From: a virus
IMG/VR virus record: IMGVR_UViG_3300020220_004354
Coordinates: 1 to 64,000 of that record
Direction: 5' to 3' (one strand)
DNA length: 64,000 nucleotides
Position numbers and translations under genes: made by a program. A model generated the notes under the pieces. That model had not been told where the DNA came from and ran no database searches. It worked only from the letters and a program-made list of their open reading frames with translations. Positions 8,165 through 37,152 of this stretch are shown in pieces. Every line of letters begins with the position of its first letter. The stretch's first letter is position 1.

Positions 8165-9595
8165 CTAGAACTTTCCGAAATAAAACGGAACAAAGACGGT
8201 TATACTCTGTGGAGACGCTTCATTCACTAATTTGTGGAGCGTTTCCATGGTTCCGCCATACTGAATATTATCATCTACAATTAAGACATTTTTCCCTCGT
8301 AGCTGATCATCCGAATTATATTGGGATACTCCGGCACTTTTCCCAAATAATTGTACGTATCGCCGTTTAGATCCCATGCTGCCGGATGGTCCGGCAAGTG
8401 ATTTATAAGTTGGCTGTAGACCAACCGGCGTACGTTCTAGCCCCTTCTGAAGCTTCGCAAATTCTTTGTCAGCCCACAACTTAGGCCATCTAGGATCAGT
8501 TGGGAGTATCGTTTCGTTGTATCGAACTGCCCCCAAATATTTTAATTGTGTCTTCCTGGTAATTTGCCTTTTTTTCGCTAACGCCGGACCTGGCGGCGTC
8601 GTTAAGTATTTGTTATGTATAGTATTTGCAAATCGCTGAAGCGCAGCACGATCAATAGTCGATTCGAAGTAATCGGTGGTGTCTTCTCTGGGCCGTTTGG
8701 CAATTTCAATTACCGGAACACCACCATATGCTTCAGAGATGCGATTCGCGAATTCCTGATTGAAACTTTGAGTCTCACCAGCACGAACAGTCGAAGTTGG
8801 GTATGCAATAATGTCCGGGAAAACATCGTGCCCATCGCCCCACTGTCCGATTACATTGACTTTGTTAATAATCTGATCCAATATAGTAGTACGCAGTTGA
8901 GCTTCATGTGCATTGCGTGGATGTTTAATAATATGCCCAAGAGCATTTTTAAGAGCCGGTAACAGTTTTTTCTTGCCTGTATTATATCGGCGAGTTGATT
9001 TAGCAAGTATTTTTCTCAGGCCATCGACTGATTCCACTCCATTTGTCTTCAGCAGTCCTTCGACTTGTTTTATGACATCAATGTCACCCTGCAATTCACC
9101 GTGTACTTGTGCACGGTGGGCATCGTTGTGATATTGAACCGATTTACTATTTAGGTCTCTCAATAATTCTTGGTGTTTTGCTGACAGAGAATCAAGATTA
9201 TTCAATCTTCTGAATTTTCCTCGTGGTGGAGAAATAGCACTAAGGGCTCGTAAAATCGGCGGTTCTTGTTTTGCTTTGTAGAAATCGAGGTCGATGTCTG
9301 CGGGATCAGCCACACGATATGCATAGTATATCCGTGCCCCTTGAAATGATTCTAGGGCTTCAGGGTCGGTAGGAGCTATATTGAGATTAACAGATTTTTG
9401 AAATGGTTCAATCTTGATAATATCATTTGGAGAATCTTGCGGTTGGAATACAAACGTACCATTAGCCTCAAGAAATTGCATCAAATCAATTTGATTGACC
9501 TTTGCCTCACCCTGGAGTCGTTGCTCAATTTGAGCAAGATCGACTCCAGAATTTGGTAAGTACGATATACCTTCGGTAATGAGTTTCAGCTTCAT
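8165..9595 (-). CDS. Phosphoribosyltransferase-like protein with capsid-targeting N-terminus
   Basis: 476 aa. The C-terminal 100 residues carry a type I PRTase signature: KNVLIVDDNIQYGGTMETL is the PRPP loop (V-D-D-x(3)-[TY]-G-x-T), and an N-terminal part of that domain contains KRRYVQLFGKSAG. Residues 1-370 are unrecognised, helical and charged. The N-terminus MKLKLITE fits M-[KR]-L-x-x-I-x-E, shared with three other proteins here, and ends in a gp21-type cleavage site, so packaging in the head is proposed. It is a monocistronic gene divergent from the one at 9643 and ends in TAG. It could modify a host base, nucleotide or NAD-related metabolite; the substrate is not visible. Confidence 0.8.
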   Translation of the reverse strand: MKLKLITEGISYLPNSGVDLAQIEQRLQGEAKVNQIDLMQFLEANGTFVFQPQDSPNDIIKIEPFQKSVNLNIAPTDPEALESFQGARIYYAYRVADPADIDLDFYKAKQEPPILRALSAISPPRGKFRRLNNLDSLSAKHQELLRDLNSKSVQYHNDAHRAQVHGELQGDIDVIKQVEGLLKTNGVESVDGLRKILAKSTRRYNTGKKKLLPALKNALGHIIKHPRNAHEAQLRTTILDQIINKVNVIGQWGDGHDVFPDIIAYPTSTVRAGETQSFNQEFANRISEAYGGVPVIEIAKRPREDTTDYFESTIDRAALQRFANTIHNKYLTTPPGPALAKKRQITRKTQLKYLGAVRYNETILPTDPRWPKLWADKEFAKLQKGLERTPVGLQPTYKSLAGPSGSMGSKRRYVQLFGKSAGVSQYNSDDQLRGKNVLIVDDNIQYGGTMETLHKLVNEASPQSITVFVPFYFGKF

Positions 9596-9642
9596 ACACT
9601 ATGTTTACCTAGACGCAAAAATATTAAAACTAGGAGATCGCT

Positions 9643-10125
9643 ATGCCAAAGCCAGTTGAAAAAAATGTGGTGGATCTAGTGGCAAGTATGCTCACCTATG
9701 ATCCAGACATCTTGATCGAAAGTGCTCCTGTCGTCAACGAGATGGGAAGATACGGTAACAAACGAACTCACACTGGCGGCGGCGAAGGGACTTACGAAGA
9801 TGAAGAAGTCCCGTTAGACGCATCGGGGACTACCGGCCACGTTATTTATACCTATGAGGTACACATCAGCGGCGGCTGGTATCCAGCCACATATGAAACA
9901 CCCGCCGAAAGTCCCGATGTGCAAATCGGCAAAATCACCAATATGGATGTCGTCGGATACGATGAAGACGGCAATGAAATCCAACCGACTCTAGAACAAT
10001 TGGAAATCTGGAAAAAGTCAGCCGTAGCCTACTTCCATGAAAAATTGGAAGCGACAGTTATCGAGAAAGAATATGATAAGCTGTCTGGCGGCGATTATGA
10101 TTATGAACCAGATTATGATTATTAA
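9643..10125 (+). CDS. Unknown protein with Asp/Tyr tail
   Basis: 160 aa, starting after AGGAG with 8-nt spacing. The central part is beta-rich (GHVIYTYEVHISGGWYPAT, IGKITNMDVVGYDEDGNEI), the following helix is LEIWKKSAVAYFHEKLEATV, and the C-terminus is the repeat DYDYEPDYDY. The DNA after the stop repeats the same tail (gattattaaccagattataa), so the tail length probably varies by slippage. Family not recognised. Divergent from the phosphoribosyltransferase gene with a 47-bp shared promoter region. Confidence 0.75.
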   Translation: MPKPVEKNVVDLVASMLTYDPDILIESAPVVNEMGRYGNKRTHTGGGEGTYEDEEVPLDASGTTGHVIYTYEVHISGGWYPATYETPAESPDVQIGKITNMDVVGYDEDGNEIQPTLEQLEIWKKSAVAYFHEKLEATVIEKEYDKLSGGDYDYEPDYDY

Positions 10126-10347
10126 CCAGATTATAATGAGGACCGTCGCCCTCTGGATCGCCTAGACGATAATTAATTTTTGGTAGCCCGACCCCATTTC
10201 TTCTAATGACTTGCTGTTTATTCGCCTCTGTGTAGAATATATAGACATAACAGATATATATTATAGATCACGAGGTGACGAAATGACAGAACTCGCGATA
10301 AATCGATGTGGAACGTGTACTGCCGTGTACTGCTTGTAGTACGCTTT

Positions 10348-10375
10348 CAGCTTCCTAACCATTCAGATACCCTCC
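10348..10375 (-). pseudogene. tRNA-Ser 5' remnant
   Basis: Minus strand reads GGAGGGTATCTGAATGG then TTAGGAAGCTG, which matches the first 28 nt of the intact tRNA-Ser(CGA) at 11108-11189 with few changes. The flanking bases (CAGATTCAGTG versus the TACAGTG flank) are similar too. No anticodon arm or T-arm follows, so it is the stub of a duplicated and partly deleted tRNA unit. The 220 bp before it (10126-10347) hold no convincing gene. Confidence 0.6.
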
Positions 10376-10383
10376 AGATTCAG

Positions 10384-10468
10384 TGACCGGAGAGGGAGTC
10401 GAACCCTCACGCCCGTTACAGAGCAAGGGATTTTAAGTCCCTAGTGTCTACCATTCCACCATCCGGTC
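10384..10468 (-). tRNA. tRNA-Leu (UAA)
   Basis: 85 nt. Acceptor GACCGGA pairs with TCCGGTC, discriminator A73. The D-arm TGGTGGAATGGTAGACAC is class II Leu-like, the anticodon loop is CTTAAAA (UAA) on a GGGA/TCCC-type stem, a long variable arm follows, and the T-loop is TTCGACT. No encoded CCA. Very close to bacterial tRNA-Leu(UAA). Confidence 0.95.
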
Positions 10469-10567
10469 ATAATCACGAAATATATTCAAGAGGCAATCGC
10501 CATTTCAATACTATCGAAGATCGCAATGAACCATCTGTCGGATTGACCGACTAATTCTCGACATCTC

Positions 10568-10720
10568 TTATATAATTCCGTGTTTTTTGATGTCGTCCCC
10601 GTATAAACAGACCGATTCTTCGCCGGTTTCGACTCGTTCCTTCCAATACGCGAGTTCTTCTGGCGGCAAGAAATCATCAAAGATCGTCAGATTTGGGAAG
10701 CTCTGGTCGTGTTTTACCAT
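10568..10720 (-). CDS. Small protein, 50 aa (candidate)
   Basis: ATG at 10720, TAA at 10568. The translation is protein-like: MVKHDQSFPNLTIFDDFLPP then EELAYWKERVETGEESVCLY and GDDIKKHGII. It overlaps the 3' end of the 138-aa gene by 44 nt in another frame, and competes with a less protein-like 64-aa frame starting at 10680. The Shine-Dalgarno is weak (GTGAGA). Soluble, no recognised domain. Confidence 0.5.
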   Translation of the reverse strand: MVKHDQSFPNLTIFDDFLPPEELAYWKERVETGEESVCLYGDDIKKHGII

Positions 10721-11093
10721 GGATATGTCTCACATCTACTCGGCCAGCGAATTCGTGAACTTCAAAGCTCACCAATAAATCTTTATTTCCAATGATTTTC
10801 CGAGGCCATTGGAATATGTCTAATATCCATCCACGTGCTTTGATTGCTTCAATGTCTTCTCGTGTCAGAAATACCGATCCACGCAGCCATCCTTTTTTCT
10901 CCATTTGAGAAGTCACGTTGCGCCTCGCGAACCGATAGGCTGAGTCCTTATTATCAAATAGGACTAGTCTGGGTAGACCTCCTGGATCATCAATTGGACG
11001 ATATACCATTAAGGGCACCCATCGTTCATGCCCACATTCAGCGTGAATATCAGCGATTTTTAATTGAGCATCATTGTATAATATTGCGTACAT
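10677..11093 (-). CDS. Unknown small protein
   Basis: 138 aa from ATG 11093, chosen over a GTG two codons upstream because AGGTG lies at the right distance. Pattern: MYAILYNDAQLKIADIHAE, a middle with LVLFDNKDSAYRFARRN, then KKGWLRGSVFLTREDIEAI. The layout of an MYxI start, a helix of the AYRFARRN kind and a GWxxGxFVL ending recurs in the 63-aa protein at 17525-17716, so the two may be related. It lies inside the tRNA cluster. Function unknown. Confidence 0.7.
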   Translation of the reverse strand: MYAILYNDAQLKIADIHAECGHERWVPLMVYRPIDDPGGLPRLVLFDNKDSAYRFARRNVTSQMEKKGWLRGSVFLTREDIEAIKARGWILDIFQWPRKIIGNKDLLVSFEVHEFAGRVDVRHIHGKTRPELPKSDDL

Positions 11094-11107
11094 ATTCACC
11101 TATCAAG

Positions 11108-11189
11108 CGGAGGACAAGGGATTCGAACCCTAAAAGCCTTTCGACCCGGCTGTTTTCGAAACGGCTTCCTGATCATTCGGATACCCTCC
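11108..11189 (-). tRNA. tRNA-Ser (CGA)
   Basis: 82 nt, class II. Acceptor GGAGGGT pairs with GTCCTCC through two G-U pairs, discriminator G73 as expected for Ser. The anticodon loop is TTCGAAA (CGA). The anticodon stem GCCGT/ACAGC has one C-A mismatch. T-loop TTCGAAT on a GGG/CCC stem. Read as tRNA-Ser for UCG codons; the mismatch suggests some decay. Confidence 0.85.
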
Positions 11190-11200
11190 GTAAAATACAG

Positions 11201-11274: not shown

Positions 11275-11279
11275 TATAA

Positions 11280-11362: not shown

Positions 11363-11453
11363 ATTATGAGCCTTTAGTAAGGACTGTGGCTACGATCATC
11401 GCCTTCGTGATATTTCCACGATGGTAGCCTTGCGGCTGACGGTACTTAAATAG

Positions 11454-12071: not shown

Positions 12072-12142
12072 TGCGACTGGTCCGGATCGAACGACCCCCG
12101 TCTTATCAAGGCGGTGCTCTAATACCGCTGAGTTGCAGTCAC
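12072..12142 (-). tRNA. tRNA-Ile (GAU), short variable region
   Basis: Acceptor GTGACTG/CAGTCGC, discriminator A73, D-arm CAACTCAGCGGTATTAGAGCA, loop TTGATAA (GAU) on the stem CCGCC/GACGG with one C-A mismatch, and T-loop TTCGATC. Only 71 nt, because the variable region is reduced to about one base and the T-stem has a mismatch. Possibly non-functional or folded unusually. It starts one base after the last base of the Pro/Glu-rich gene, on the other strand. Confidence 0.65.
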
Positions 12143-12145
12143 GTA

Positions 12146-12219
12146 TACCGCTATGGTGATTCGAACCCACCGTTACCCGGCTTAGAACCGGGTAGCCTTG
12201 GTTTCTAGCTGATAGCGGC
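12146..12219 (-). tRNA. Candidate amber-suppressor tRNA (CUA anticodon)
   Basis: 74 nt. Acceptor GCCGCTA/TAGCGGT, discriminator A73. The anticodon arm is a perfect 7-bp stem TACCCGG/CCGGGTA closing the loop TTCTAAG, which places CUA at 34-36 with U33 and A37. The arm resembles that of the E. coli supE (glutamine-type) suppressor. Weak points: the D-loop lacks GG, and the T-stem GGTGG/TCACC pairs only when the loop is shifted by one base. It lies 3 nt from tRNA-Ile. A tRNA-Arg(UCU) reading would break the stem. Confidence 0.6.
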
Positions 12220-12255
12220 ATAAGTGTGACCGCCCAGGATAGGAAACGGGCCAGT

Positions 12256-12711
12256 ATGCGACTACGAATAATAGATGAAAATAGGCTTCGAAGTCAAGTG
12301 TTAGATGGAAGAACAATCGTATATGAAATTCTAAATTCGTTTCCAGACGGAGAAAGATTGCAACGAGCCCTATCGGCTGCCACAGGTGATTCTCCGAAAT
12401 GGTTCGATGTTCATGCATTTAGAGATCACAGCGGCAAGCTTGTAGGAGTGGCTAGTCTCTGGAAAGCACCAGATCATGGAGACTCTGAAGGGATGCCCAA
12501 GGGCGATTATTTAAGAATAGGAAGTTTAGCAACCGCCCATCCTGGAATTGGATCAGAAGTCATAAGAGGTTTAAAGTCCGTAGCCGCAGACCATGGGGCT
12601 GGATTGTACCTATCTTCGACGGAAGGGTCTGCCCAAATCTATAAAAAGCACGGATTTCGTGAGGGTTTCGGAGCTACCTATTATTTGACTGATGAAGACG
12701 TTTCGTTATAA
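12256..12711 (+). CDS. GNAT acetyltransferase with capsid-targeting N-terminus
   Basis: 151 aa from ATG 12256. The GNAT core is in the C-terminal half: YLRIGSLATAHPGIGSEVIR (motif A, acetyl-CoA pyrophosphate loop reduced to HPGIGS), GLYLSSTEGSAQIYKKHGFR (motif B). It would acetylate an unknown amine. The N-terminus MRLRIIDE is one of four in this window fitting M-[KR]-L-x-x-I-x-E; T4-type gp21 proteases cut after (I/L)xE. The first four codons are identical to those of the next gene (12716). No strong Shine-Dalgarno at normal spacing. Confidence 0.82.
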   Translation: MRLRIIDENRLRSQVLDGRTIVYEILNSFPDGERLQRALSAATGDSPKWFDVHAFRDHSGKLVGVASLWKAPDHGDSEGMPKGDYLRIGSLATAHPGIGSEVIRGLKSVAADHGAGLYLSSTEGSAQIYKKHGFREGFGATYYLTDEDVSL

Positions 12712-17768: not shown

Positions 17769-18818
17769 ATGTTACCACGATACGATCACCCAAAAATCTC
17801 AGAAATTTGGTCCATTGGCAATAAATACCTTGTATGGACGCAAATTGAATTATCATTTCTGTCAGAACTAAAAGCCGTCTCCATTCTCGCCCCTGATCAT
17901 TTCGAGTCATCGTGGATCGATGACATCCAATCGAGAGAAATGCAAACGAAACACGATGTAGTCGCATTCGTTGAGTGGCTCGAATCGAAAGTACACGAAA
18001 CTGATCCATTATTCAGCCGATTCGTGCATTATGGTTTGACTTCATCGGACATTGTTGACACCGCTTTTTCTATGATGATCCGTGCCAGCAATGAAGTTAT
18101 CACTGATCTCTTGCGAGCACTCGTATCTATACTCAAGCAGAAAATCTCTGAGTGTGATGGAATTATGATCGTGGGACGAACTCATGGGCAGGCCGCAGAA
18201 CTAATGCCACTCAGCCAAAAGTTCGATACATATTTGCACACAATTCTCAGGTACGGAACATTCAAATGTGCTTATTACGGACGATTGGCGGATAGTGTAG
18301 GATCACTAAAGTATGTCAATCGTGCTGTCGTTATAAACACGCTGTCTAAACTGAATCTCGTCGAAGGCTTGTATGATGGGCAGATCATCCACCGTGGCAT
18401 CTATGCAGAACGCATGAATGAATGGGCATTATTGGCAAGTGCAATCGCGAAAATTGCAACCGATATTCGGCTATTATCACAAAGCGGAATAGAAGAAATG
18501 GCAGAAGGATTTGAAGAAAACCAAGTCGGATCATCCAGCATGCCGCACAAGCGAAATCCTATACAATGTGAGAATATTTGTGGTCTAGCCAGAGTAATTA
18601 GAGGATATCAAACCACAGTAATGCAGAATATTGAACTGTGGAACGAGCTAGATATCAGCCATTCAAGTGCCGAAAGGATCGTTTTTCCAGACGCGGCAGT
18701 ATTATTGGGATTTATGATTGAACGAATGACAAATATTATCACAAATCTGAGAATCGACAAAGACAAGATCGCTCGAAATACACAAACGCCCGGATTATCC
18801 GTGATAAATCATATGTAA
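17769..18818 (+). CDS. purB: Adenylosuccinate lyase, C-terminally truncated
   Basis: 349 aa against about 430 in cellular PurB. Catalytic regions are intact: TKHDVVAF (His62), TSSDIVDT, GRTHGQ (His139, general acid), SVGSLKYVN, and the fumarase-superfamily loop GSSSMPHKRNP at 254-264 holding the catalytic serine. The last 80 residues (ADSL_C domain) are absent; the frame ends in VINHM and overlaps the convergent GNAT gene by 24 nt. It would split succinyl-AMP or SAICAR. As ADSL_C closes over the active site, activity is uncertain. Ribosome-binding site GGAGAAG. Phage PurB is unusual. Confidence 0.9.
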   Translation: MLPRYDHPKISEIWSIGNKYLVWTQIELSFLSELKAVSILAPDHFESSWIDDIQSREMQTKHDVVAFVEWLESKVHETDPLFSRFVHYGLTSSDIVDTAFSMMIRASNEVITDLLRALVSILKQKISECDGIMIVGRTHGQAAELMPLSQKFDTYLHTILRYGTFKCAYYGRLADSVGSLKYVNRAVVINTLSKLNLVEGLYDGQIIHRGIYAERMNEWALLASAIAKIATDIRLLSQSGIEEMAEGFEENQVGSSSMPHKRNPIQCENICGLARVIRGYQTTVMQNIELWNELDISHSSAERIVFPDAAVLLGFMIERMTNIITNLRIDKDKIARNTQTPGLSVINHM

Positions 18819-19280
18819 ACTATCTTGAGACCATCCACGTCCTTCCGGTTCAAATCCGTAACGTCGTTCCAGATAACCGGCTAATTTCGGATTCACAACA
18901 TACACACGGATGTAGGCATTTCCAAATTCAGATTTCAGTGAGCGGTAGTGGTCTAAAGCAGCATCAATAAGTTTTGGCCCAATCCGAGCAGACGCCATGC
19001 CCATAGCTCGCGATTTTGGATCAACTGCAACGTCAAAATCGAAGCGGTATACATCCTCTCCGTATTCTTGACTTGCTTCATCGTCACGTTCGAACGCTGA
19101 CCAAACCGCCCCGACAACTTCGCCACCTACTTGTGCGACTAGTGTTAACTCTTTATTCCGAGATATTCTAATTCCCGAATTGCTAGCAATACGGTCTGCC
19201 TGATCAGCAGCCTCCCAATCTTCGGGATCTGCCGCATTAATCTCAGGTTCTACGAATTCGAGTATAGTGCGAAGTTTCAT
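18795..19280 (-). CDS. GNAT acetyltransferase with capsid-targeting N-terminus
   Basis: 161 aa. GNAT pattern: TLVAQVGGEVVGAVWSAF, strand 4 YRFDFDVAVDPKSRAMGMAS (acetyl-CoA loop region), LIDAALDHYRSLKSE, and AYIRVYVVNPKLAGYLERRY ending in GFEPEGRGW. The N-terminus MKLRTILE ends in an (I/L)xE gp21-type cut site; residues 9-45 are an acidic linker. Only seven bases separate the ATG from a 29-bp hairpin and no Shine-Dalgarno is visible, so translation may depend on hairpin processing. Only general fold similarity to the GNAT at 12256. Confidence 0.82.
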   Translation of the reverse strand: MKLRTILEFVEPEINAADPEDWEAADQADRIASNSGIRISRNKELTLVAQVGGEVVGAVWSAFERDDEASQEYGEDVYRFDFDVAVDPKSRAMGMASARIGPKLIDAALDHYRSLKSEFGNAYIRVYVVNPKLAGYLERRYGFEPEGRGWSQDSLHMIYHG

Positions 19281-19285: not shown

Positions 19286-19355
19286 ATATTTTAATGAGCC
19301 GACATAGAAGAAGGTCGTGAAAGCGGCCTTCTTCTATGTCGGCTCATTAAAATAT
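19286..19355. repeat. 29-bp perfect inverted repeat (long hairpin)
   Basis: Arms 19286-19314 and 19327-19355 are exact reverse complements (29 of 29), with a 12-nt centre that pairs three more positions. One arm encodes the last residues and TAG of the nuclease gene (19334); the other sits in the leader of the GNAT gene. In the minus-strand mRNA this makes a hairpin directly before the GNAT start. It is not followed by a T-run, so an RNase III type processing site or a translation block fits better than a simple terminator. Confidence 0.9.
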
Positions 19356-21420: not shown

Positions 21421-23040
21421 TTAGAGGTTAGAGACCGTGATGGTTGCGTAGTACAGACCACCGTCTTCGATGAGCTTCTTGCCGTATCGGGTCATGATAC
21501 CCTTGTTCGGCGTGAAGCTGTTTGGATCGAGAACGGTCGGCGTGCTGAGCAACGGAATGTATGGGGCGTAGAAGTAGCCCGCATCCAGAACGCTGCTGCC
21601 CTTAAATCCGAGCAGGATCTTGCAATTCGGGAAGAGCGGATCTTTGTAAATCCGCATCTTGCCTTGGATCGTGCCGACGTTCATGATGCCGACATCCACA
21701 CCTTCTGTAGTGAAGGCGTCCGATGCACGGAAGTCATTCAACTGCTCGAACTTCGAGCAGATGTCAGCACTCATCACCATCCAGTTCGCCGGACCACGGA
21801 GAGTGGTGCGGTGGATGATGTTGGCGACTTCGAGCGTCTTGTACATCAACGCGATGTTGCGGTCTGTGAAGTTGACCGATGCACCGGCTGCCGTCGCGAA
21901 GTTGTGATCAGCACGAATCGAGGCGGAAATGATCAAGTCGTTGATGATTTCGCGGTCGATTTCGGCGACCATTTCGTCGGCCATCAAGTCCGTCAAGGTG
22001 CTCTCGGCATCGATGTTGTGCACCGACTTCAGGTCTTGAGCGGCTTCCAGCGACCAAGAGGTCTTCAGCTTGCGGGTGATAGCAGCGACCGAATCGCTGT
22101 CGATGCTCAACGTAACTTCCGGCTGGAACGGGTTGGCTTCGAGATCGTACTCGTAGTTCACCCGTGCGACAGCTCCACCCGGGAAAACACCGGCACTCAG
22201 AGTGATCTGAACTGCACCGGTTGTGTGGTTGAAGGTTGTCGCACCAGCAGTAACCGTATCAACAGAGATGTTAGCGGTGAACTCAGTGCAGTCACCAACC
22301 AACACGGTATCGGGACTGCCGTCCGCATCGAAGGTAACTCGCAAGCAAGGCACTGCGTCATCGCAGTTCGGGCCTGCATCGGCTTCGCTGGCGAATGCTT
22401 CGACCACGACCGTTCCAGCGAGAACCGGGCGATGGGCCAGAGTCGCTGAAATCACTGTGCCACCGACAATCGTCGCGTCTTCGCCACGAACTTCTTGCGA
22501 AGAGTAATACGGGTCAAGTGCCCAACCGTTCTGACGGGCAGAGCCTTGAGCGGTGTTCTGACGCATGATCTGCGTTCCGGCAACCGTCTGTCCCTTCGTG
22601 AGAGCGTAACGATATCGGATGTAGAAGATCAAGCTGGCTGGCTGGCTCATCGGTTGAACGCCGACGAGATTGTCAGCAATCAACTTCGGATAGGACTTCC
22701 GGATGAGCGGAAGAGCGAACCGAGTAAAATCGGCGATGTTCGCGGTTGTCGTCTGGTCTTCGAAGATGACCGAGCGATTTTCCGGATTGTTGTGCTTGTA
22801 CTGGTTTTCGAGAATTGCCGCCATCAAGCCGAATTTCTGCGGCGTGACTTCACGGCACTTGCTGAGCACCGGGGACCACTTCTTGACGAGTGCATTCTTC
22901 TTGGACTCGTGAAAAACTGATGCCTTGTGCAAATCGGTTTCTTCCGTAATTGGACGGCGACCGGCTCCCGCACCTTCAACCAGATGACGGCGGCGAGCGT
23001 TGCCAGACACCGCAGTACGGCTGCTTCGCGTTGGTAACAT
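21421..23040 (-). CDS. Major capsid protein, T4 gp23-like
   Basis: 539 aa. HK97-fold T4-type features: FALPLIRKSYPKLIADNLVG then VQPMSQPASLIFYIRYRYAL, the conserved gp23 P-domain start; EVTLSIDSDSVAAITRKLKT; ADEMVAEIDREIINDLI; NWMVMSADICSKFEQL; and KDPLFPNCKILLGFKGSS. Residues 1-40 are an Arg-rich propeptide with candidate gp21 cut sites HLVE and PITE (near residues 22 and 34). A cysteine-bearing insertion around residues 215-300 corresponds to the position of an external insertion domain. Ribosome-binding site AAGGAG. Last gene of the head cluster. Confidence 0.96.
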   Translation of the reverse strand: MLPTRSSRTAVSGNARRRHLVEGAGAGRRPITEETDLHKASVFHESKKNALVKKWSPVLSKCREVTPQKFGLMAAILENQYKHNNPENRSVIFEDQTTTANIADFTRFALPLIRKSYPKLIADNLVGVQPMSQPASLIFYIRYRYALTKGQTVAGTQIMRQNTAQGSARQNGWALDPYYSSQEVRGEDATIVGGTVISATLAHRPVLAGTVVVEAFASEADAGPNCDDAVPCLRVTFDADGSPDTVLVGDCTEFTANISVDTVTAGATTFNHTTGAVQITLSAGVFPGGAVARVNYEYDLEANPFQPEVTLSIDSDSVAAITRKLKTSWSLEAAQDLKSVHNIDAESTLTDLMADEMVAEIDREIINDLIISASIRADHNFATAAGASVNFTDRNIALMYKTLEVANIIHRTTLRGPANWMVMSADICSKFEQLNDFRASDAFTTEGVDVGIMNVGTIQGKMRIYKDPLFPNCKILLGFKGSSVLDAGYFYAPYIPLLSTPTVLDPNSFTPNKGIMTRYGKKLIEDGGLYYATITVSNL

Positions 23041-23083: not shown

Positions 23084-23803
23084 TTAGATCAGGTCTTCGT
23101 CCATACCCTCGGCAATGTCACCAATGTTAAACCCACGTTGTGGTTGGGTTTGAACAGGCGAAGCCTTGCGTTGTGGCTGGCGTCGGTCCTGATTTTCGAG
23201 GAGCGTCTGACGAGTCGTTACCGGGTGAGTGGCAGTACGGCTTACGTCAATTCTCTTTCGTCCGCCTTGTGTTTGGCGTGACTCAGAGACCGTACCCAAG
23301 CGTTGCTTGAGTTGTGCGTTCTCTGCGGCCAACCGTCGATTCTCCTTGAGAGCTTTCTCGGAGATCGCTACTTGGCGATTGGCAACTTCGACTGCACGAG
23401 TGCGTTCCTCGTTGACCTGCTGGATCTTGAGCTTTGCCTTGTCCAACGCGGCTGTAGCTTGTCCATTTGGCTCACCATTCGGCTCGATGCCCTCAAGGAG
23501 GGACATAACGTTCTTAAGCCTGGTAACAGCCTCGGACTCACTAAGGGCCGACTGCTTAGCAAGCTGTGCCTCAATCGCAGCAGCTTTCGTCTCACAGAAG
23601 ATCTGAACTCGACGAGCGAGTTCTCTCTTGTGTGCTTCCGTCTCTTCGATGCAGACTTTCTTAGCCTGCTCGATACGATTCTGGTAGTCAGAATCGTATT
23701 GCTCACGAAGAGTTGTCTTGTAGTCCTCAAGGGCCTCGCAGATGCTGCCAACCAAGTCCTGGTTGCAACCTGCCTTTTCCAAGAGTGTCTTGATCTTGTT
23801 CAT
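23084..23803 (-). CDS. Prohead core scaffold, gp22-like
   Basis: 239 aa, almost entirely helical and charged: long heptad-like segments EDYKTTLREQYDSDYQNRIEQ and AALDKAKLKIQQVNEERTRA, then a disordered basic/Gln region (QDRRQPQRKASP) and an acidic end NIGDIAEGMDEDLI. It lies between protease and capsid, exactly where T4 gene 22 lies. The assembled core is expected to be degraded by the gp21 homologue; (I/L)xE sites such as LLE and CIEE are present. Ribosome-binding site GAGGAG. Confidence 0.85.
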   Translation of the reverse strand: MNKIKTLLEKAGCNQDLVGSICEALEDYKTTLREQYDSDYQNRIEQAKKVCIEETEAHKRELARRVQIFCETKAAAIEAQLAKQSALSESEAVTRLKNVMSLLEGIEPNGEPNGQATAALDKAKLKIQQVNEERTRAVEVANRQVAISEKALKENRRLAAENAQLKQRLGTVSESRQTQGGRKRIDVSRTATHPVTTRQTLLENQDRRQPQRKASPVQTQPQRGFNIGDIAEGMDEDLI

Positions 23804-23865: not shown

Positions 23866-24648
23866 TTATCTCCGAGACCGGCTCGGAATCTTTGGTCCAC
23901 GCTTGTCCAAACCGAAGTAACTTTCAATCTCTTGAACCAAGAGATTTTGGTATGCTTGCGGACTGAATCGATTGCGGGATTCCTTAATTGGTTTCAACCG
24001 CCGACTCAGGCTTTCTTGGATTTGCAGAATTGCCCCATTCACTGACGGTTCCGCCACAGCGTCCCACGTCACAAATGAATATCCAGGCATCACGCGATAA
24101 ATCTGATGTCCATGGTGTTCCGCGACTTCCATATCACCCACACCACGGGATGAAATACCAACTCGAACTTTATGTTCAAACAACCCGCGAAGGTATGAAC
24201 CGCAAGGCAGTTTGTGAAGCACTTCAGCTTCACCGAATACCTTCTTCCCATCCATCCACACTTTCGTGATCAGATGGCTTACGCGGTCGAGATGGATTTT
24301 GGCATCGGCTGGGTGGTCAAATTCACCCATCACGGCTCGATGAGAAACGTCTTCTTGAATTCCCCGAACAGCAGGAGCAAGAACATCATTGCTTGGATAG
24401 AAGCGTTGATTGGCGTTCTCTTTGTCGCCCATTTGGAAAAGCCCAGTGACTCGCATCACTGGAACTTCTTTGCCGTTAACGTCTTCCGTTACTGTTTCTT
24501 TCCGATCAATAATTTCGAATGGGAAAACATCACGGATAAGCTGCATACCGGTAGGAATAACACCAGTTTCAGCGATTAATCCCCGATTGATGGCAGGGAA
24601 ACCACGCTCTTCCATAAGCGTGGCATATGATCGACGGCTAGGCAACAT
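23866..24648 (-). CDS. Prohead maturation protease, gp21-like
   Basis: 260 aa. Serine protease of the herpes-assemblin-like fold used by T4 gp21: AVMGEFDHPADAKIHLDRVS has the catalytic His112, GISSRGVGDM the catalytic Ser (166 or 167), with GLFQMGDKENANQRFYPSND at the substrate side. The N-terminus has LME and the C-terminal tail EIESYFGLDKRGPK could be auto-processed. Its expected specificity (I/L)xE matches the N-termini of the four capsid-targeting candidates and the capsid propeptide. Confidence 0.93.
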   Translation of the reverse strand: MLPSRRSYATLMEERGFPAINRGLIAETGVIPTGMQLIRDVFPFEIIDRKETVTEDVNGKEVPVMRVTGLFQMGDKENANQRFYPSNDVLAPAVRGIQEDVSHRAVMGEFDHPADAKIHLDRVSHLITKVWMDGKKVFGEAEVLHKLPCGSYLRGLFEHKVRVGISSRGVGDMEVAEHHGHQIYRVMPGYSFVTWDAVAEPSVNGAILQIQESLSRRLKPIKESRNRFSPQAYQNLLVQEIESYFGLDKRGPKIPSRSRR

Positions 24649-24651: not shown

Positions 24652-27600
24652 CTAATCTCCCTTTTTCGCCGTTGGCGGCTTGGTTCCGGTGCCATCATCC
24701 TTCTTGACGGTCGGACCAATGTCCTCTAACTCGTCGTCAGTGGCCTTCGGCAACTTCGGAGTTGGCATATCACGTAAATTATCCTTTACGTGCTTGGTAT
24801 ATTTGGCATTCGATGGACTGGTCACATCCTGATCTTCGACCATTCCTTCGGTTTCGTCCTCTTCCTCCACTTCCTCCTCTTCCTCCTCGTCCTCCTCGTC
24901 TCCCATTTCTGGTGGACCAGCGACTTCTCCATCCATCGAATCTTCGCCATTTTCGAAGTCTGGCATGGCATCATCATCGCCACCCATGTCTCCAGCATCA
25001 TCTCCGGGAGCATTGATAGAATCGACCGGCGACATTCCGGAAGTATCATCACCGGCATCGCCCATATCATCCATGGAGTCGCCCATGTCGGCGATCATAC
25101 CATCATCGCCGCCTTCACCACCGGCTCCAAGTTTTCCAACATCGATATCATCAGAGACTTCGACGGATATCGTTCCATCCGGACCGGTCGTGATTTTCGC
25201 CATGGCCTCGTTTAAGGCATTGTCTTCACCGTCATCAATTGGACGCAATTGCTCAATCGATTCACTGATCCATTTGGTGAATGCACGCGGATCGCCGTAG
25301 CTCATCTTCGCAGCGGCAAACGCGCTTTCATAAAGTGCTTTCGGAATTGGAATTTCAACCGATCCGTCTTCACTCAAGATGACAGGAGTGAGAGATTCAT
25401 CAGAGCCACCATGGTCGAAGATGAATCGAACTCCCGCATATTCACCAAGAACAGCATCTTTCTGTGCCTGTCCCCATCTAATGCGGCTTTCCTTGGTCGT
25501 CTTCCCAACGCTGGCACGGCCATATCCGCGTGGAGTAATTCGTGGGCTTCGGTACTGATCTTCGGCCACACCCTCATCGTCCGAATCATCTGATTCCCAT
25601 GGCTTCTCGGAATCGCCGGAATCGCCAGAATCATCACAAACAAAATCGTCCGAACCACTCTTCTTGAACGGCGGAGCGGCACCAGGGAATGGACCACCCT
25701 TATCGTCGTCACTTTCCAAAAAGCACGTTACAACCTGTTCCAGTGCTCTCGACATCTTGCCTTCTGGGATTCGCATTCCCAAGGCTTTCAACGAGGCTTT
25801 CGCCATGCTGGGAAGGCTTTGTTCGAGAAGCTTACCAGACAGACGATTTTCGGTCGCCAAACGCTGCATGATTCTGATGATCTTTTCGAGGTCTCCTTCA
25901 TCAGTGATTACCGGCGTGCCGTAATCAGTGATATGAACACCTTCTGAGAGATCGATTCCTTCATCACGCCGAATAGCATATGGATCTAAGCCTTCCTCAA
26001 TCTCATCGTCATCGCACGGCATATCGTCATCTTCGTCCTTCTTCATCTCATAATGAACAGGACGGGATTCTGATAGTGGTTTTTTCTTCTTGTACTTGCC
26101 TTCCATCGGCGGAGCACCGCCCGGAGCCGGAGGAGCACCCGGAGCAGGAGCAGCAGGAGCAGCAGGAGCAGCAGCAGGGGCCGGAGCTGGAGGAGCACCA
26201 CCGCCAGCACCCAACAGGGCATCCAGATCTTCGTCACCACCGGCTGGCGAAGGCGGAGGGACTTCTCCAGCGGCTCCAGCACCCGGTTTACCGGCACCAC
26301 CGCCAGAACTCTGACCACCAATTTGAATCAGCGGAGAGTTGATATTGATGACAGGAGCACCACCGCCGCCCCCAAGATCGCCACTAAGATCGAGAGCATC
26401 ACTTCCAGCCGGACCACCTCCAGGTGGCATTTGATCGAATCCCTGAAGTGTGTCGGCGGCAGCAAGCTCTTCTTGAATTGTCGCGATCAAATCCTCGGCT
26501 TCATAGATCGCAGCATCGTCGAAGTTTTTGTCCTTCAACCGCGTGATCAAGCTGCTCAACTTGCTCGACAATTCGTGCGACTCCCGAATTTTCGGAGTCT
26601 TGTTTCGCAAGACATCCAAAGTCGTGGCCAAAGCTTCGGCGGCGACTTCTCGGTTTGAAATTGTTTCGAAAATCAATGCCAAGAATTTCTGGTATGCACT
26701 CTCGAAATTCTTCGATTCTTCGAGAATCCGCACATTTTCCATCAACGCCGGATGTTCCGACTTCTTGGCAATATTTCTCCATTCATCGATAATCTTACGG
26801 CGGCTCAGCTTCATATTGGTTCTGAAGAAGAGCGTAGCGGTGTCATCACACAGTTGCTGGTTGAAAATCGCTTTCGAAGCCAATGCGTTCTCAACCAATG
26901 TCTGGAATTGAGCACGATTGAGGAGTGTGAATTCCTCCATCGATTCTAAGAATGGTGTCACAGCCTGAACAGCGTCGTCGATTTTCGCTTCAGACACCAA
27001 TCTGGCAGCGTGATAGACGCGGTTTTGGAATCCTTCGGACCAGTATGCATTCTTGGCGGCTTCCATCATCCGTCGAGCGACCAGCTTTCGTGCCGCCCAT
27101 TTCGTGACAGGCAACGAGATCGGTTCTCCATCGCCGAATGAACCGGAGACGACTGTTCCGTTCTCGACAAGAACGCGATCTCGCAGATTCTCGACAATCA
27201 CAGCGACCAGTTTTGACCGCACATTGTTTTCGAGACTGACATTGTTCGGTTGAATACTGATGCGTCGCAGAACACCATCTCGGCATCGAACAGCACCAGA
27301 GTAAGGAACAGCCCGACCTGAGAATCGCTGGGCTTTCATGCGGTCAAATGAAACCTGCATGCCCTTTTGGTCGTTTTCTTCAATTGCCGAAACCAATTTC
27401 TCGCAGGTTTCAGCAAACAGACCTTGCTTTTCTTCTTCAACAATTTCGAGAGGTCTAATATTAGTGATTGTGACCTTGCCATGGGCCTCGCGGACGTGTT
27501 CTGCAATGAAGAATTGTTGCGCATTCACATCTTCAATATAAAGTTGCTTGGCGTGAAGAGCAGCTAGTCTCCACTGTTTACCAGCAGAGCGGCCCATTTG

Positions 27601-27708
27601 TTCGATCCGCTCTTCGAAAACGGCAACTTTTGCCTGAGCAGAATCGTTCAATGCACCAAGGAATTTGCGACTGTCAATTCGTACCGGGCCGGTTGTATTC
27701 GATGTCAT
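24652..27708 (-). CDS. Giant acidic prohead-core candidate
   Basis: 1018 aa, lying between portal and protease where T4 has the small core genes 67 and 68. Residues 1-420 are helical and folded (KQWRLAALHAKQLYIEDVNA; MKLSRRKIIDEWRNIAKKSE). Residues 425-560 are Gly/Pro/Ala low complexity. Residues 590-830 form a second folded part, and 860-1018 are a strongly acidic tail with runs of Asp/Glu (EEDEEEEEEVEEEDE). Several (I/L)xE sites occur in the linkers. A processed core or genome-condensing internal protein is inferred; no family is recognised. Confidence 0.75.
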   Translation of the reverse strand: MTSNTTGPVRIDSRKFLGALNDSAQAKVAVFEERIEQMGRSAGKQWRLAALHAKQLYIEDVNAQQFFIAEHVREAHGKVTITNIRPLEIVEEEKQGLFAETCEKLVSAIEENDQKGMQVSFDRMKAQRFSGRAVPYSGAVRCRDGVLRRISIQPNNVSLENNVRSKLVAVIVENLRDRVLVENGTVVSGSFGDGEPISLPVTKWAARKLVARRMMEAAKNAYWSEGFQNRVYHAARLVSEAKIDDAVQAVTPFLESMEEFTLLNRAQFQTLVENALASKAIFNQQLCDDTATLFFRTNMKLSRRKIIDEWRNIAKKSEHPALMENVRILEESKNFESAYQKFLALIFETISNREVAAEALATTLDVLRNKTPKIRESHELSSKLSSLITRLKDKNFDDAAIYEAEDLIATIQEELAAADTLQGFDQMPPGGGPAGSDALDLSGDLGGGGGAPVININSPLIQIGGQSSGGGAGKPGAGAAGEVPPPSPAGGDEDLDALLGAGGGAPPAPAPAAAPAAPAAPAPGAPPAPGGAPPMEGKYKKKKPLSESRPVHYEMKKDEDDDMPCDDDEIEEGLDPYAIRRDEGIDLSEGVHITDYGTPVITDEGDLEKIIRIMQRLATENRLSGKLLEQSLPSMAKASLKALGMRIPEGKMSRALEQVVTCFLESDDDKGGPFPGAAPPFKKSGSDDFVCDDSGDSGDSEKPWESDDSDDEGVAEDQYRSPRITPRGYGRASVGKTTKESRIRWGQAQKDAVLGEYAGVRFIFDHGGSDESLTPVILSEDGSVEIPIPKALYESAFAAAKMSYGDPRAFTKWISESIEQLRPIDDGEDNALNEAMAKITTGPDGTISVEVSDDIDVGKLGAGGEGGDDGMIADMGDSMDDMGDAGDDTSGMSPVDSINAPGDDAGDMGGDDDAMPDFENGEDSMDGEVAGPPEMGDEEDEEEEEEVEEEDETEGMVEDQDVTSPSNAKYTKHVKDNLRDMPTPKLPKATDDELEDIGPTVKKDDGTGTKPPTAKKGD

Positions 27709-33723: not shown

Positions 33724-34707
33724 CTACTCTTCATCAAAGTCCACATTCGATTTCCGATTGTCGATCTTAGGTTCGCCAATAGATCGATTCAGCATCGAAT
33801 CAGAGAGTTCGAAGCTACGTAGCTTCACAAGATGCAAAAAATTCGTCACAATCACCCGCGATAGACCAGACTGGTCAACCAATTTACCAATAAGACCATC
33901 ATATGGACGGTCATCATTCAGAACCAAGTATTCTAATGCATCAATGATTTTCAAATGATTATCGTCATACTGATTCAATTCTCTTATTTCTGATAAGAAT
34001 CTAGCCATCACTCCGCTGACGGGCTTCTGCTTATTTCCGAGATGACTAACATATGACCCAGAATTCTTTCGGTCACGACCTTCTTTTTTGATGTGGGCAA
34101 GAATCACTGTTCTGGCAATCTGAGACCACATATTAAAAACTTTTGACATCCCGCGATACAAAATGGTCTCAGAACCACCATATCGCCCTTGGACCGGTTC
34201 AATAATCGGGGTTGTGGTCAATTTGATTCCGCACTTTGGGCAATGCCGGTGCATCGCCACTACTTCATCTAATGTCTTGATTCCATATTCGAGATCGCCC
34301 GGTTGATACAATAACGATTCGGCTGGACGTTCCCAATTGAAGCACTTACGACAATGTGGGCGTGAACGATACTTGTACAAAGTTCGTTCAATTTGAACCC
34401 ATGCTGTCTGAAGAAGATCACCGAAAGACGATTCATCCTGGCCGGGATAGATGGTATGCAAGCCTTGCTTACGAATGATCTGGCGAATCAATTCGGTAGC
34501 ATGCGACATAATCATGTCGCGTAATCGAACTTGGGTGCAACCGGTCCATAAATATTGAGTAAGCTGCCATTCGACTATTTCATTAATGAAATACAGTTTC
34601 CGCAGCGGAACCTCAGGTGTTGAAGAGGGTTCGCTGGGCTGTTGTTGCTCTAGAGAAGAACTTTCGTTCGATTCTAAATCGTCGCTTTTCAACGAGTTCT
34701 CGGCCAT
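33724..34707 (-). CDS. Late sigma factor, gp55-like, with zinc insertion
   Basis: 327 aa from ATG 34707. Sigma-70 region 2-like helices: SSFGDLLQTAWVQIERTLYK and, after an insertion, MSKVFNMWSQIARTVILAHI KKEGRDRK. The insertion carries CRKC and CPKC pairs (Cys119/122 and Cys156/159), a zinc ribbon inside region 2. The C-terminal DGLIGKLVDQSGLSRVIVTNF resembles an HTH. T4 gp55 directs RNA polymerase to TATAAATA promoters, and one such site is at 36239. Overlaps the helicase 3' end by 95 nt. Confidence 0.75.
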   Translation of the reverse strand: MAENSLKSDDLESNESSSLEQQQPSEPSSTPEVPLRKLYFINEIVEWQLTQYLWTGCTQVRLRDMIMSHATELIRQIIRKQGLHTIYPGQDESSFGDLLQTAWVQIERTLYKYRSRPHCRKCFNWERPAESLLYQPGDLEYGIKTLDEVVAMHRHCPKCGIKLTTTPIIEPVQGRYGGSETILYRGMSKVFNMWSQIARTVILAHIKKEGRDRKNSGSYVSHLGNKQKPVSGVMARFLSEIRELNQYDDNHLKIIDALEYLVLNDDRPYDGLIGKLVDQSGLSRVIVTNFLHLVKLRSFELSDSMLNRSIGEPKIDNRKSNVDFDEE

Positions 34708-36232
34708 CAATGACACCACCGGGGAATATTACCTGAACGTCGAATCCGGCATTTACCATGGCTTTCAATCTGGATTTCGAGTGACTGTAGAGATATCTGT
34801 TGCATCGGAAGAAAAAATCAAAAATCCTGCTATATCCTTGTTGATTTCTTCGAAGGGCACGTCCGACTTTTTGTATCAAGTCGGATTGTAGTTTACCTCC
34901 TCCAGCAATTATCAGATTCTCACAGCCTCCTGCCAAATCGAGTCCACGATTGATAATTTTACCACCAATAAGTACGTTGAACTCTCGCTTTTCAAACTTC
35001 CGCAGTATCTCATCTCTGCGACGCTTTGGTGTCTCGCCATAAATGAAGTGAGCTTCCATTCCCTGACCGTTAATTGATTTCTCCAATGCGAATCCAAGAT
35101 CTTTACGATCCACAAGAATCAACGTTCCGTCTTCCCGATATTTCTTGCAGATACTAGTAATAAGCTGATGAAAGCGTTGGTTTTCGATTAACCATTCAAC
35201 ATACGCCATATCATAAGCCGAAGCTTCATCAATGTTTCCCTCTAGACCGAATGCCATCATTTTGTAATGGCATGGAATGATTCGGCCATGCTTCTGAACA
35301 TTATCGCGGGTTTCCTTCACGATAATCGATCCGAGATGCTCCTGCATCACCATCGCTTCCACTGGCTTATCCGGGTCGATAGGCGTTGCAGAAAATCCGT
35401 ACCGTCTTCGCCCCTTATAATAGTGTCTGAACAGTGATTTATAAGATTCCGAAGTGGCTTTGTCGCATTCATCGACAATTATCATCTCAGCCTTTCTGAC
35501 ATATGAATATAAGAATTTGACATTCTTCACCCTAGTCTGATGTGCTTTGTATGATTGATCCCATTTTTGCAGCCGTTTGTTTAATGCATTATCTGTTTCA
35601 TTAAGCTTTCGTATCGGAACATCTGGCGGCTTTTTTGGTGGATTCAATGATTGAATCAACCCAACTATGACCATCTCGCCGTTCGGTCGCTTGCCAGCAT
35701 AGAACAAACCAACTTCTTCAGCGATATCACGCAATTCAAGCCGTTTTTTCAACTGATCCACAACCACTCGTTGATCTGCCAGAATCAATGTGGGGCAGGG
35801 AATCGCTTTGCAAATGCCACAAATGACTTCACCCTTCCCACTTCCAGTGGGCATATCAATGATTCCGCACTCAGCCTTGCAACATTTCTGAATCGCCCGA
35901 ATTTGATAATCTTCGAGCTTAATACCTGGCAAGAAGTCTGGGGTTATATCTTCTGGCTTTGCAGCCTCGTATGCCCACTGCTGGCGACGATCTTGTATGA
36001 TCAACGGCAATCCGTGCTTCGTACACACTCCTCGAAGCATGCTCAATAGAGGTCGAGCCATTCGCTTTTTAGCCCGATTGTATTTGCGATAGATTCCATC
36101 CCAATTACCACGCATTGCTGGATCGATATAGACATTCGGCTTACAAACGCTAAATTCTTCCCATATTATCTGATCCTCAGGATCAGTAATATGATCAAGA
36201 TAAATCCATTGATTGTCAACGTAAGCTATCAT
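34613..36232 (-). CDS. SF2 helicase, UvsW-like
   Basis: 539 aa. Helicase motifs: IIDMPTGSGKGEV (Walker A, 128-134), IIVDECDKAT (DECD box, 254-257), YGFSATP (motif III), TLILVDRKDLGFAL (IV), NVLIGGKIINRGLDLAGG (V) and DLIQKVGRALRR (VI). The N-terminal 110 residues are the small UvsW-type domain. In T4, UvsW unwinds branched DNA and R-loops and moves the phage from origin- to recombination-dependent replication. Divergent from the Tat-motif gene with a 62-bp intergenic region. Confidence 0.9.
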   Translation of the reverse strand: MIAYVDNQWIYLDHITDPEDQIIWEEFSVCKPNVYIDPAMRGNWDGIYRKYNRAKKRMARPLLSMLRGVCTKHGLPLIIQDRRQQWAYEAAKPEDITPDFLPGIKLEDYQIRAIQKCCKAECGIIDMPTGSGKGEVICGICKAIPCPTLILADQRVVVDQLKKRLELRDIAEEVGLFYAGKRPNGEMVIVGLIQSLNPPKKPPDVPIRKLNETDNALNKRLQKWDQSYKAHQTRVKNVKFLYSYVRKAEMIIVDECDKATSESYKSLFRHYYKGRRRYGFSATPIDPDKPVEAMVMQEHLGSIIVKETRDNVQKHGRIIPCHYKMMAFGLEGNIDEASAYDMAYVEWLIENQRFHQLITSICKKYREDGTLILVDRKDLGFALEKSINGQGMEAHFIYGETPKRRRDEILRKFEKREFNVLIGGKIINRGLDLAGGCENLIIAGGGKLQSDLIQKVGRALRRNQQGYSRIFDFFFRCNRYLYSHSKSRLKAMVNAGFDVQVIFPGGVIDGRELVEKRRFRIERKFFSRATTAQRTLFNT

Positions 36233-36238
36233 AAGACA

Positions 36239-36246
36239 TATAAATA
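36239..36246 (+). promoter_or_regulatory. T4-type late promoter TATAAATA
   Basis: Exact consensus TATAAATA on the plus strand, 49 nt before the ATG of the Tat-motif gene. T4 late promoters need only this -10 element plus gp55. The leader then contains a GGGACCC palindrome before the ATG. Predicts late expression, in time for packaging into the head. Confidence 0.55.
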
Positions 36247-36294
36247 CGCAAATATAACATCAACCAAACCAACATTATACATGGGACCCATGGC

Positions 36295-37152
36295 ATGAAA
36301 TTATCACTGATAATTGAAGCTGAATTCACCAGACGAAATTTCTTAAAAAGTATGGCCGGTGCGGCAGCAGCACTTTCTGGAAATGCGCCAATAGCTCAAG
36401 CTGTGGCAAAAAATACTATTGGTGCTCAAGCTGTAAACAAGTTAATTCCACAGTGGGAACGATTCCGTGGCTTTCCCTGGGGCGTGTTTACAATTTTTAC
36501 TGGCACTGATGCTACCCGGTATGAACCAGCCTTAATAGATCAATTTAAATCTGTCGCTAGTGCGGCTAACATTGCCAAACAAATTGGATATGGTGACATA
36601 AAATTTGGAGTTGATAAGTGGGATGGTGATGCGATTTTCGTAAACAACCTTCTGCCTGATATATATTCTGAAATCGAAAGAAAAGCAAATGCCGGTGAAG
36701 ATATAAAAATCGCCGGAAAATTATATGATATAGTAGATGACGAAGATTCATTCTCACTTCACCCACGAGAAGGCGAACTGCAGGGCTGGATAAATATACC
36801 TAAATATGGTTCCGCCCCAAAAACCCACCACTTCAATACCGGCCAGCTCCGCCCGGTCGGTGACGATCCGATCAAAACATGGTGGGATAATTATGGTGTT
36901 CATATTGATGTTGAAATCGATGAAGCCGCCAAAGAAGTAATCAAAAATCACAATTTAGATACATCTAGACACGAGAAAAGATTTGCAGAATATGAACAAA
37001 AGCATCGAGAGCAACTAGAGCGAGAACAACAGCGAGAACGAGAAAAACTTAAACATGACAATGAAATGATGCGATGGGCTGACGACGGTGGCCGTGTGGC
37101 GGAAAGCTTCTTACGCCGCCTCAACCGTTCACTGCAAAAAATTCATAATTAA
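36295..37152 (+). CDS. Capsid-targeted protein with twin-arginine motif
   Basis: 285 aa. The N-terminus MKLSLIIE fits the shared capsid-targeting pattern. Directly after the predicted cut comes AEFTRRNFLKSMAGAAAALS GNAPIAQA, a twin-arginine signal (TRRNFLK, hydrophobic core, Ala-x-Ala). The following domain (residues 50-215) includes WERFRGFPWGVFTIFTGTDA and DGDAIFVNNLLPDIYSEIER, not recognised. Residues 220-270 are a charged single helix (REQLEREQQREREKLK). Expected path: into the prohead, cleavage by gp21, injection, then possible host Tat export. The last two steps are speculation. Confidence 0.75.
   Translation: MKLSLIIEAEFTRRNFLKSMAGAAAALSGNAPIAQAVAKNTIGAQAVNKLIPQWERFRGFPWGVFTIFTGTDATRYEPALIDQFKSVASAANIAKQIGYGDIKFGVDKWDGDAIFVNNLLPDIYSEIERKANAGEDIKIAGKLYDIVDDEDSFSLHPREGELQGWINIPKYGSAPKTHHFNTGQLRPVGDDPIKTWWDNYGVHIDVEIDEAAKEVIKNHNLDTSRHEKRFAEYEQKHREQLEREQQREREKLKHDNEMMRWADDGGRVAESFLRRLNRSLQKIHN

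What the first reader, a model, noticed from the sequence alone, without database searches (positions are those of the whole stretch)
8165..37152. Four unrelated proteins share an 8-residue N-terminus ending in a prohead-protease site
Seen: MKLKLITE (9595, minus), MRLRIIDE (12256, plus), MKLRTILE (19280, minus) and MKLSLIIE (36295, plus) all fit M-[KR]-L-x-x-I-x-E with Glu at position 8. The domains that follow are unrelated (PRTase, GNAT, GNAT, Tat-motif protein). Known: T4 internal head proteins and Alt carry short capsid-targeting N-termini cut by gp21 after (I/L)xE, and a gp21 homologue is at 23866-24648. Inference: this is a capsid-targeting tag, and the four proteins form a cargo set delivered with the DNA, probably to reprogram the host.
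Basis: partly seen in the sequence, partly recalled or inferred. Interest (0 to 1): 0.9.

Follow-up and report, generated by a model that had tools for sequence, protein, structure and literature searches.

The report
Packaging tag on giant-phage cargo proteins
A family of uncultured giant phages puts the same eight-residue label on many unrelated enzymes, very likely so that they are loaded into the virus head, trimmed there and delivered to the next host with the DNA; the label therefore lets one predict injected proteins from sequence alone.

Summary
All four N-termini are in the sequence. The full 100-kb record holds two more (71248+, 99055+). In seven related giant-phage records M-[KR]-L-x-x-[IL]-x-E opens 35 of 1,698 genes. 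It matched 39 of 2,887 candidate ATG starts and 0 of 7,286 internal Met (p=4e-22), and only the spacing that puts Glu at residue 8 is enriched. Residue 9, not used in the search, is Ser/Ala/Gly in 24/35 tagged genes against 17% elsewhere (p=7e-11), as expected if a protease cuts after Glu8. The genome has a T4 gp21-type prohead protease (S77). Tags use diverse codons; 13/37 sit exactly 4 nt behind a promoter-like AAAnATA box. Cargo includes GNATs, SAM lyase, ADP-ribosyltransferase-like, 2H phosphoesterase, NUDIX and PRTase proteins. T4-like phages use a different tag (MKxFxxF[IL]xE) ending in the same site. In cyanophage S-CREM2, with published virion mass spectrometry, a strict T4-type DNA pattern hits only two genes; both encode virion-detected non-structural enzymes. 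One is a SAM hydrolase homologous to a tagged clade protein. Best reading: a lineage-specific variant of the T4 capsid-targeting sequence. Cleavage, packaging and injection are not shown for these proteins.

The parts
9572..9595 (-). 8-residue tag MKLKLITE (cut predicted after Glu8)
8165..9595 (-). tagged cargo, 476 aa, phosphoribosyltransferase PRPP motif at residues 428-471; rest unknown
9600..9606 (-). promoter-like box AAACATA, 4 nt before the ATG
   Evidence: sequence; statistics
12256..12279 (+). tag MRLRIIDE; internal ATG of a GTG-started ORF, no box; least certain of the four
12256..12711 (+). tagged cargo, 151 aa, GNAT acetyltransferase
19257..19280 (-). tag MKLRTILE; disordered in the model (residues 1-14)
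18795..19280 (-). tagged cargo, 161 aa, GNAT; orthologues with tags in G019 and L317/L318
19285..19291 (-). promoter-like box AAATATA, 4 nt before the ATG
   Evidence: sequence
19291..19350 (.). perfect 24-bp hairpin (-43 kcal/mol) separating the cargo gene from the upstream gene
36295..36318 (+). tag MKLSLIIE, followed at once by a Tat-like signal AEFTRRNFLKSMAG
36295..37152 (+). tagged cargo, 285 aa, Tat-type signal then unknown protein; lone + strand gene between two - strand genes
   Evidence: (no relatives outside this phage population)
23866..24648 (-). prohead core serine protease (Peptidase_S77, T4 gp21 type), presumed tag-cutting enzyme
23084..23803 (-). probable head scaffold (by position and sequence character); its N-terminal LLE is not conserved, so not counted as a tag
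21421..23040 (-). major capsid protein (Gp23)
22759..22770 (-). putative capsid-protein maturation site VIFE (residues 91-94); [IL]xE or close variant in relatives

Best explanation
The eight residues are a capsid-targeting sequence, a clade-specific version of the one on T4 internal proteins. Proposed steps: (1) tag genes are expressed late, often from a box placed so close to the ATG that the mRNA would be leaderless (inferred). (2) M-K-L-x-x-[IL] brings the protein into the prohead core, presumably by binding the scaffold (inferred). (3) The gp21-type protease cuts after Glu8, usually leaving a mature protein that starts with Ser, Ala or Gly (supported by residue 9 statistics, not shown). 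(4) The freed enzyme stays in the head with the DNA and enters the next host at injection (inferred from T4). (5) There it acts before any phage gene is expressed: destroying SAM, acetylating or ADP-ribosylating host proteins, or removing signalling nucleotides (inferred from domains).
For: Tag at 39/2,887 candidate starts vs 0/7,286 internal Met; spacing k=2 gives 35 genes, every other k 0-3. 69 tagged proteins aligned share nothing but MKLxxIxE, M1 and E8 invariant. Residue 9 Ser/Ala/Gly 24/35 vs 212/1226, no enrichment at residues 10-20. Leu3 uses all six codons, so selection is on protein. S77 protease and gp23-type capsid in the genome; capsid site [IL]xE in relatives; T4 gp21 cuts after L/I-x-E and IPIII needs only 10 residues for packaging (PMC9026906). 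Orthologues keep a tag or carry variants ending in [IL]xE: GNAT MKLRTILE / MKLSILHE / MRLREIHICE; MKLRNIIE / MKLRNIMISE; MKLHCINE / MNISSILHE. T4-type tag found in T4 ipII and ipIII and in cyanophages, absent from ten searched records of this clade. In S-CREM2 the strict T4-type pattern hits only ORF6 and ORF154, both non-structural virion proteins by published MS; regex 3/52 virion genes vs 0/151 others. S-CREM2 ORF6 SAM hydrolase is homologous to tagged cargo of clade phage G007.
Against: No proteomics exists for this clade and no cultured close relative was found: the nearest GenBank phage capsid protein is 40% identical. The capsid-protein site has Asp/Glu/Asn at P1', unlike most tags. Scaffold Glu9 is not conserved, so the tag receptor is unknown. 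The motif can occur by chance or descent: T4 UvsY begins MRLEDLQE and is a false positive. Most tagged genes (24/40) lack the box. The authors of the S-CREM2 proteome warn of possible carry-over.
Confidence: 0.83

Rival explanations
1. The shared start is chance or compositional bias among many AT-rich N-termini.
For: The motif is short (few fixed positions) and natural look-alikes exist, e.g. UvsY.
Against: 0.12 expected vs 3 in the window; 39 vs 0 at internal Met, p=4e-22, one spacing only; unselected residue 9 bias.
Confidence: 0.01
2. The tag is a removable head-targeting peptide but the proteins are head-assembly or scaffold components degraded in the prohead, not delivered effectors.
For: In T4, core proteins such as gp22 and gp67 are also gp21 substrates (PMC9026906); many cargoes are of unknown function.
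Against: Cargo varies from phage to phage and includes enzymes with no assembly role (SAM lyase, GNAT, NUDIX, 2H phosphoesterase); genes lie scattered, often alone between opposite-strand genes; the SAM-hydrolase homologue is detected in mature S-CREM2 virions.
Confidence: 0.08
3. The N-terminus is an address for another place (for example a phage replication compartment or the membrane) and the [IL]xE ending is incidental.
For: Some giant phages sort proteins to a phage nucleus (general knowledge; PMC13282480 reviews such phages); not tested in this clade.
Against: Glu8 with small residue 9 is what a prohead protease site predicts; variant tags of other lengths keep [IL]xE; the T4-type counterpart agrees with virion content.
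Confidence: 0.05
4. The conserved start reflects gene expression (ATG-AAR and the upstream box), not a peptide function.
For: Box AAAnATA exactly 4 nt upstream in 13/37 tagged genes and few Shine-Dalgarno sites (6/40 vs 560/1222).
Against: Codons 3, 6 and 8 vary synonymously while the residues are kept; 24/40 tagged genes lack the box; some untagged genes have it.
Confidence: 0.02

Closest known systems
T4 capsid targeting sequence (IPI, IPII, IPIII, Alt) and prohead protease gp21
   Same: Short removable N-terminus on unrelated proteins, ending in L/I-x-E, in a genome with an S77 protease and a gp23-type capsid; T4 IPI inhibits GmrSD and IPIII is needed on strain ECOR17 (PMC9391042).
   Different: 8 residues M-K-L-x-x-I-x-E instead of the 10-residue MKTYQEFIAE type; the T4 pattern is absent from the ten clade records searched; a far larger and more varied cargo list.
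Virion-associated enzymes of cyanophage S-CREM2 (SAM hydrolase, APH/ChoK-like kinase, NMNAT-like)
   Same: Enzyme cargo found by mass spectrometry; these proteins begin MKDFDSFLE, MKRFDAFLTE, MKNFSSFLTE; the SAM hydrolase is homologous to tagged clade cargo.
   Different: Uses the T4-type tag; the passages read do not mention a targeting sequence.
Phage P1 DarB N-terminal capsid-targeting signal
   Same: N-terminal signal that loads a counter-restriction protein and can carry a reporter (PMC9024508).
   Different: Different signal; P1 appears to lack a separate scaffold system.
SPN3US and phiKZ ejection proteins
   Same: Giant phages with proteins packaged in the head, some processed by a prohead protease (PMC10052503).
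   Different: In SPN3US the protease cuts after A-x-E; no common short tag described in the passages read.

Membership tests
T4-type capsid targeting sequence | short N-terminal propeptide shared by otherwise unrelated proteins | tested here: met
T4-type capsid targeting sequence | ends in the gp21 site L/I-x-E | tested here: met
   site from PMC9026906
T4-type capsid targeting sequence | same genome encodes an S77 prohead protease and a gp23-type capsid | tested here: met
T4-type capsid targeting sequence | sequence of the T4 IP tag, MKx[FY]xxF[IL]xE | tested here: not met
   none in ten clade records; so it works like a T4 CTS but is not the same sequence family
T4-type capsid targeting sequence | cleavage after the Glu in the mature virion | not testable with these tools
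   indirect support only: residue 9 bias
T4-type capsid targeting sequence | tag necessary and sufficient for packaging; cargo injected | not testable with these tools
   no cultured member found
GNAT acetyltransferase (12256, 19280) | profile match and fold | tested here: met
   (above Pfam cut-off for PF00583); fold of 19280
Phosphoribosyltransferase (9595) | PRPP-binding motif and full domain | tested here: inconclusive
   only residues 428-471 match, at the cut-off
Tat signal peptide (36295) | RRxFLK motif and Pfam TAT_signal score | tested here: inconclusive
   22.5 bits vs cut-off 22.7; a second tagged protein with SRRDFLK in L011
T4 late promoter | TATAAATA at -13 to -6 of the transcription start, gp55 sigma | tested here: inconclusive
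   AAAnATA enriched at a fixed 4 nt before ATG; no gp55 match found for 33724-34719; no transcript data

The most novel reading that the evidence does not exclude
Some cargo carries two stacked addresses. In 36295 (MKLSLIIE|AEFTRRNFLKSMAG) and in the contig-truncated relative-phage protein L011:13459 (MKLSAIIE|VDSRRDFLKKSGAG) a Tat-type export signal starts right after the predicted cut. The capsid tag would load the protein into the head; its removal would expose a Tat signal, so that after injection the new host's Tat system exports it to the envelope, for instance to block later phages.
Probability: 0.15. Interest if true: 0.8.

Novelty: new variant of a known kind. Interest (0 to 1): 0.66.

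Why it matters
Which phage proteins enter the cell with the DNA is normally learned only by virion proteomics of cultured phages. Here a tag readable from sequence predicts injected effectors, most of unknown function, in uncultured phages with records up to 408 kb, and the cargo list reads like a first-strike counter-defence set. The comparison with T4-type tags suggests that each lineage keeps its own address while the protease site stays constant, and that cargo moves between lineages by taking the local tag. It also offers a new eight-residue candidate tag for loading proteins into phage heads.

Tried and rejected
Chance or composition: rejected. Scaffold N-terminus MNKIKTLLE as a tag: rejected, Glu9 varies among relatives. 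UvsY and an antisense ORF matching the motif (L189, L040): false positives; UvsY was still in the family survey but not in the statistics. Relatives of 8165, 12256 and 36295 were found only in the same phage population, so there is no orthologue test for them. AlphaFold of the Tat protein failed (pLDDT 42). NUDIX in bacterial genomes: no relative. gp55-like sigma for 33724-34719: no match. The SSLSR block of SAM lyases has Glu in front in all homologues read, including FNE in Campylobacter phages, so that Glu may belong to the domain. The relaxed S-CREM2 patterns were chosen after seeing the proteins; only the pattern was fixed beforehand.

Full report
OBSERVATION. The four N-termini are present as described. 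The window is part of a 100,391-base virus record. A six-frame scan of the whole record for M[KR][LFIVM]..[ILVMF].E returns six ORFs: the four, plus 71248+ MKLRTIAE and 99055+ MKLRQLSE. In the window the DNA pattern for MKL..[IL].E occurs three times against 0.12 expected; MRLRIIDE falls outside it because its Arg codon is CGA.

THE CLADE. The capsid protein finds 143 relatives in IMG/VR, 80 kept at 71-100% identity, on contigs up to 408 kb. The nearest GenBank record is an uncultured 595-kb phage at 40%. A degenerate pattern search of 22 records gave clear excess over the reversed-pattern control. I read seven relative records in full (one is the same phage as the window) and called genes with a simple hexamer scorer.

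STATISTICS. Including the window record, the strict motif opens 39 genes: 39 of 2,887 candidate ATG starts against 0 of 7,286 internal Met, p=4e-22. Leaving the window record out, 35 of 1,698 genes. Varying the spacer between MKL and [IL]xE gives 35 genes at the observed spacing and 0-3 at any other. 69 tagged proteins aligned together share only MKLxxIxE. Codons of the fixed residues vary freely. Residue 9 was not part of the search, yet it is Ser/Ala/Gly in 24 of 35 tagged genes against 212 of 1,226 others, with nothing at residues 10-20. This is the independent signature of a cleavage site between residues 8 and 9.

PROTEASE. 23866-24648 is Peptidase_S77, the T4 gp21 family, next to a Gp23 capsid gene. 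T4 gp21 cuts after L/I-x-E, and ten residues of IPIII are enough for packaging (PMC9026906). The capsid precursors of relatives carry an [IL]xE site (once MEE) before a conserved T-rich block, with Asp/Glu/Asn after it.

TAG AS A MODULE. The 19280 GNAT has orthologues starting MKLSILHE (38%) and MRLREIHICE (49%), the latter a ten-residue variant that keeps the upstream box. Other pairs: MKLRNIIE / MKLRNIMISE and MKLHCINE / MNISSILHE. The small 99055 protein has look-alikes MKLRQITE (G005) and MKLSMINE (G006) (similarity judged by eye). Conversely, DUF5662, NUDIX and RWPEGEE-repeat proteins occur with and without tag. The modelled GNAT has a disordered first 14 residues before the domain.

CARGO. 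Pfam finds GNAT (4), S-adenosylmethionine lyase, 2H phosphoesterase with a weak Acb1 match, ADP-ribosyltransferase-like, NUDIX, RNase T-like, DUF5662 and PRTase. Most cargo has no family. Tagged genes lie alone between two opposite-strand genes more often than others (29% vs 8%). In this record 36295 and 71248 lie so, and 19280 is separated from the upstream gene by a 24-bp hairpin.

UPSTREAM BOX. Tagged genes rarely have Shine-Dalgarno sites (6/40 vs 560/1,222). AAAnATA (first base A or G) sits exactly four bases before the ATG in 13 of 37 (0.09 expected per position) and before 25 of 1,224 untagged genes (2.5 expected). T4 late promoters lie at -13 to -6 (PMC1524935), so such transcripts would begin at or near the ATG. 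This is inferred; no transcript data exist and no gp55 was identified.

OTHER LINEAGES AND THE EXTERNAL CHECK. A pattern drawn from the T4 IP tag occurs in T4 (ipII, ipIII and gene 61.1), two cyanophages and Vibrio phage D479, and in none of ten clade records. The clade tag shows no such excess in T4-like phages (one of the two T4 hits is UvsY by its known start). Relatives of the clade's tagged SAM lyase led to Synechococcus phage S-CREM2, whose virion was analysed by mass spectrometry (PMC10665884). The T4-type pattern, fixed before this genome was seen, hits only two places: ORF6 SAM hydrolase (19 peptides) and ORF154 cytidylyltransferase (3 peptides), both non-structural virion proteins. 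A protein-level version finds 3 of 52 virion genes and 0 of 151 others, p=0.016. Looser patterns find five or six, but were chosen after the fact. So in a related lineage the presumed tag and virion content agree; the authors caution that carry-over cannot be excluded.

VERDICT. Shown: a non-random, protein-level, fixed-length N-terminal motif on unrelated proteins across a phage clade, with a statistical cleavage signature. Inferred: scaffold binding, cutting by the S77 protease, packaging, injection and action on host defences. Works like a T4 capsid-targeting sequence; differs from it in sequence, length and scale. The literature search covered open-access papers only, so an earlier description elsewhere cannot be excluded.

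Noticed in passing
L373 / OR473000 (S-CREM2), and NC_000866 18966-19130: Virion-detected non-structural proteins of S-CREM2 begin with a T4-type tag (ORF6, 14, 154; looser in 13, 15, 136). T4 gene 61.1 (MKTFKEFIKE) also fits and may be an unrecognised internal protein.
   Followed up: partly
L011:13459 and window 36295: Two tagged proteins have a Tat-type motif directly after the predicted cut (SRRDFLKK, TRRNFLKS); the L011 gene is cut off by the contig end.
   Followed up: partly
L364, L365 (Lak phages), L363, L371, L372, L374: SAM-lyase homologues in Lak, Microcystis, Campylobacter and Alishewanella phages start with different N-termini that end in xxE before a conserved SSLSR-type block.
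   Followed up: partly
L159 and other G006 stretches (G006 125288, 126023, 131738, 132301, 154648): Several genes of G006 share a longer N-terminus M[KT][IV]DP[KN][QK]IA[KR]MI[TS]EDPDEINPLD, possibly a second tag type.
   Followed up: no
L173, L146, L074: Repeat proteins with the unit IKGRWPEGEEAIKSDPEYAYRYAYDVI, in many copies in G019 (untagged) and tagged in G007 and L074; function unknown.
   Followed up: no
window 12140-12220 (-): Sequence looking like an additional tRNA (possible anticodon TCT, T-loop GGTTCGAATCACC) that ARAGORN did not list, just upstream of the 12256 cargo gene.
   Followed up: no
window 24652-27708 (-): 1,018-aa acidic protein between portal and protease genes with no family match and several [IL]xE sites; candidate core protein.
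   Followed up: no
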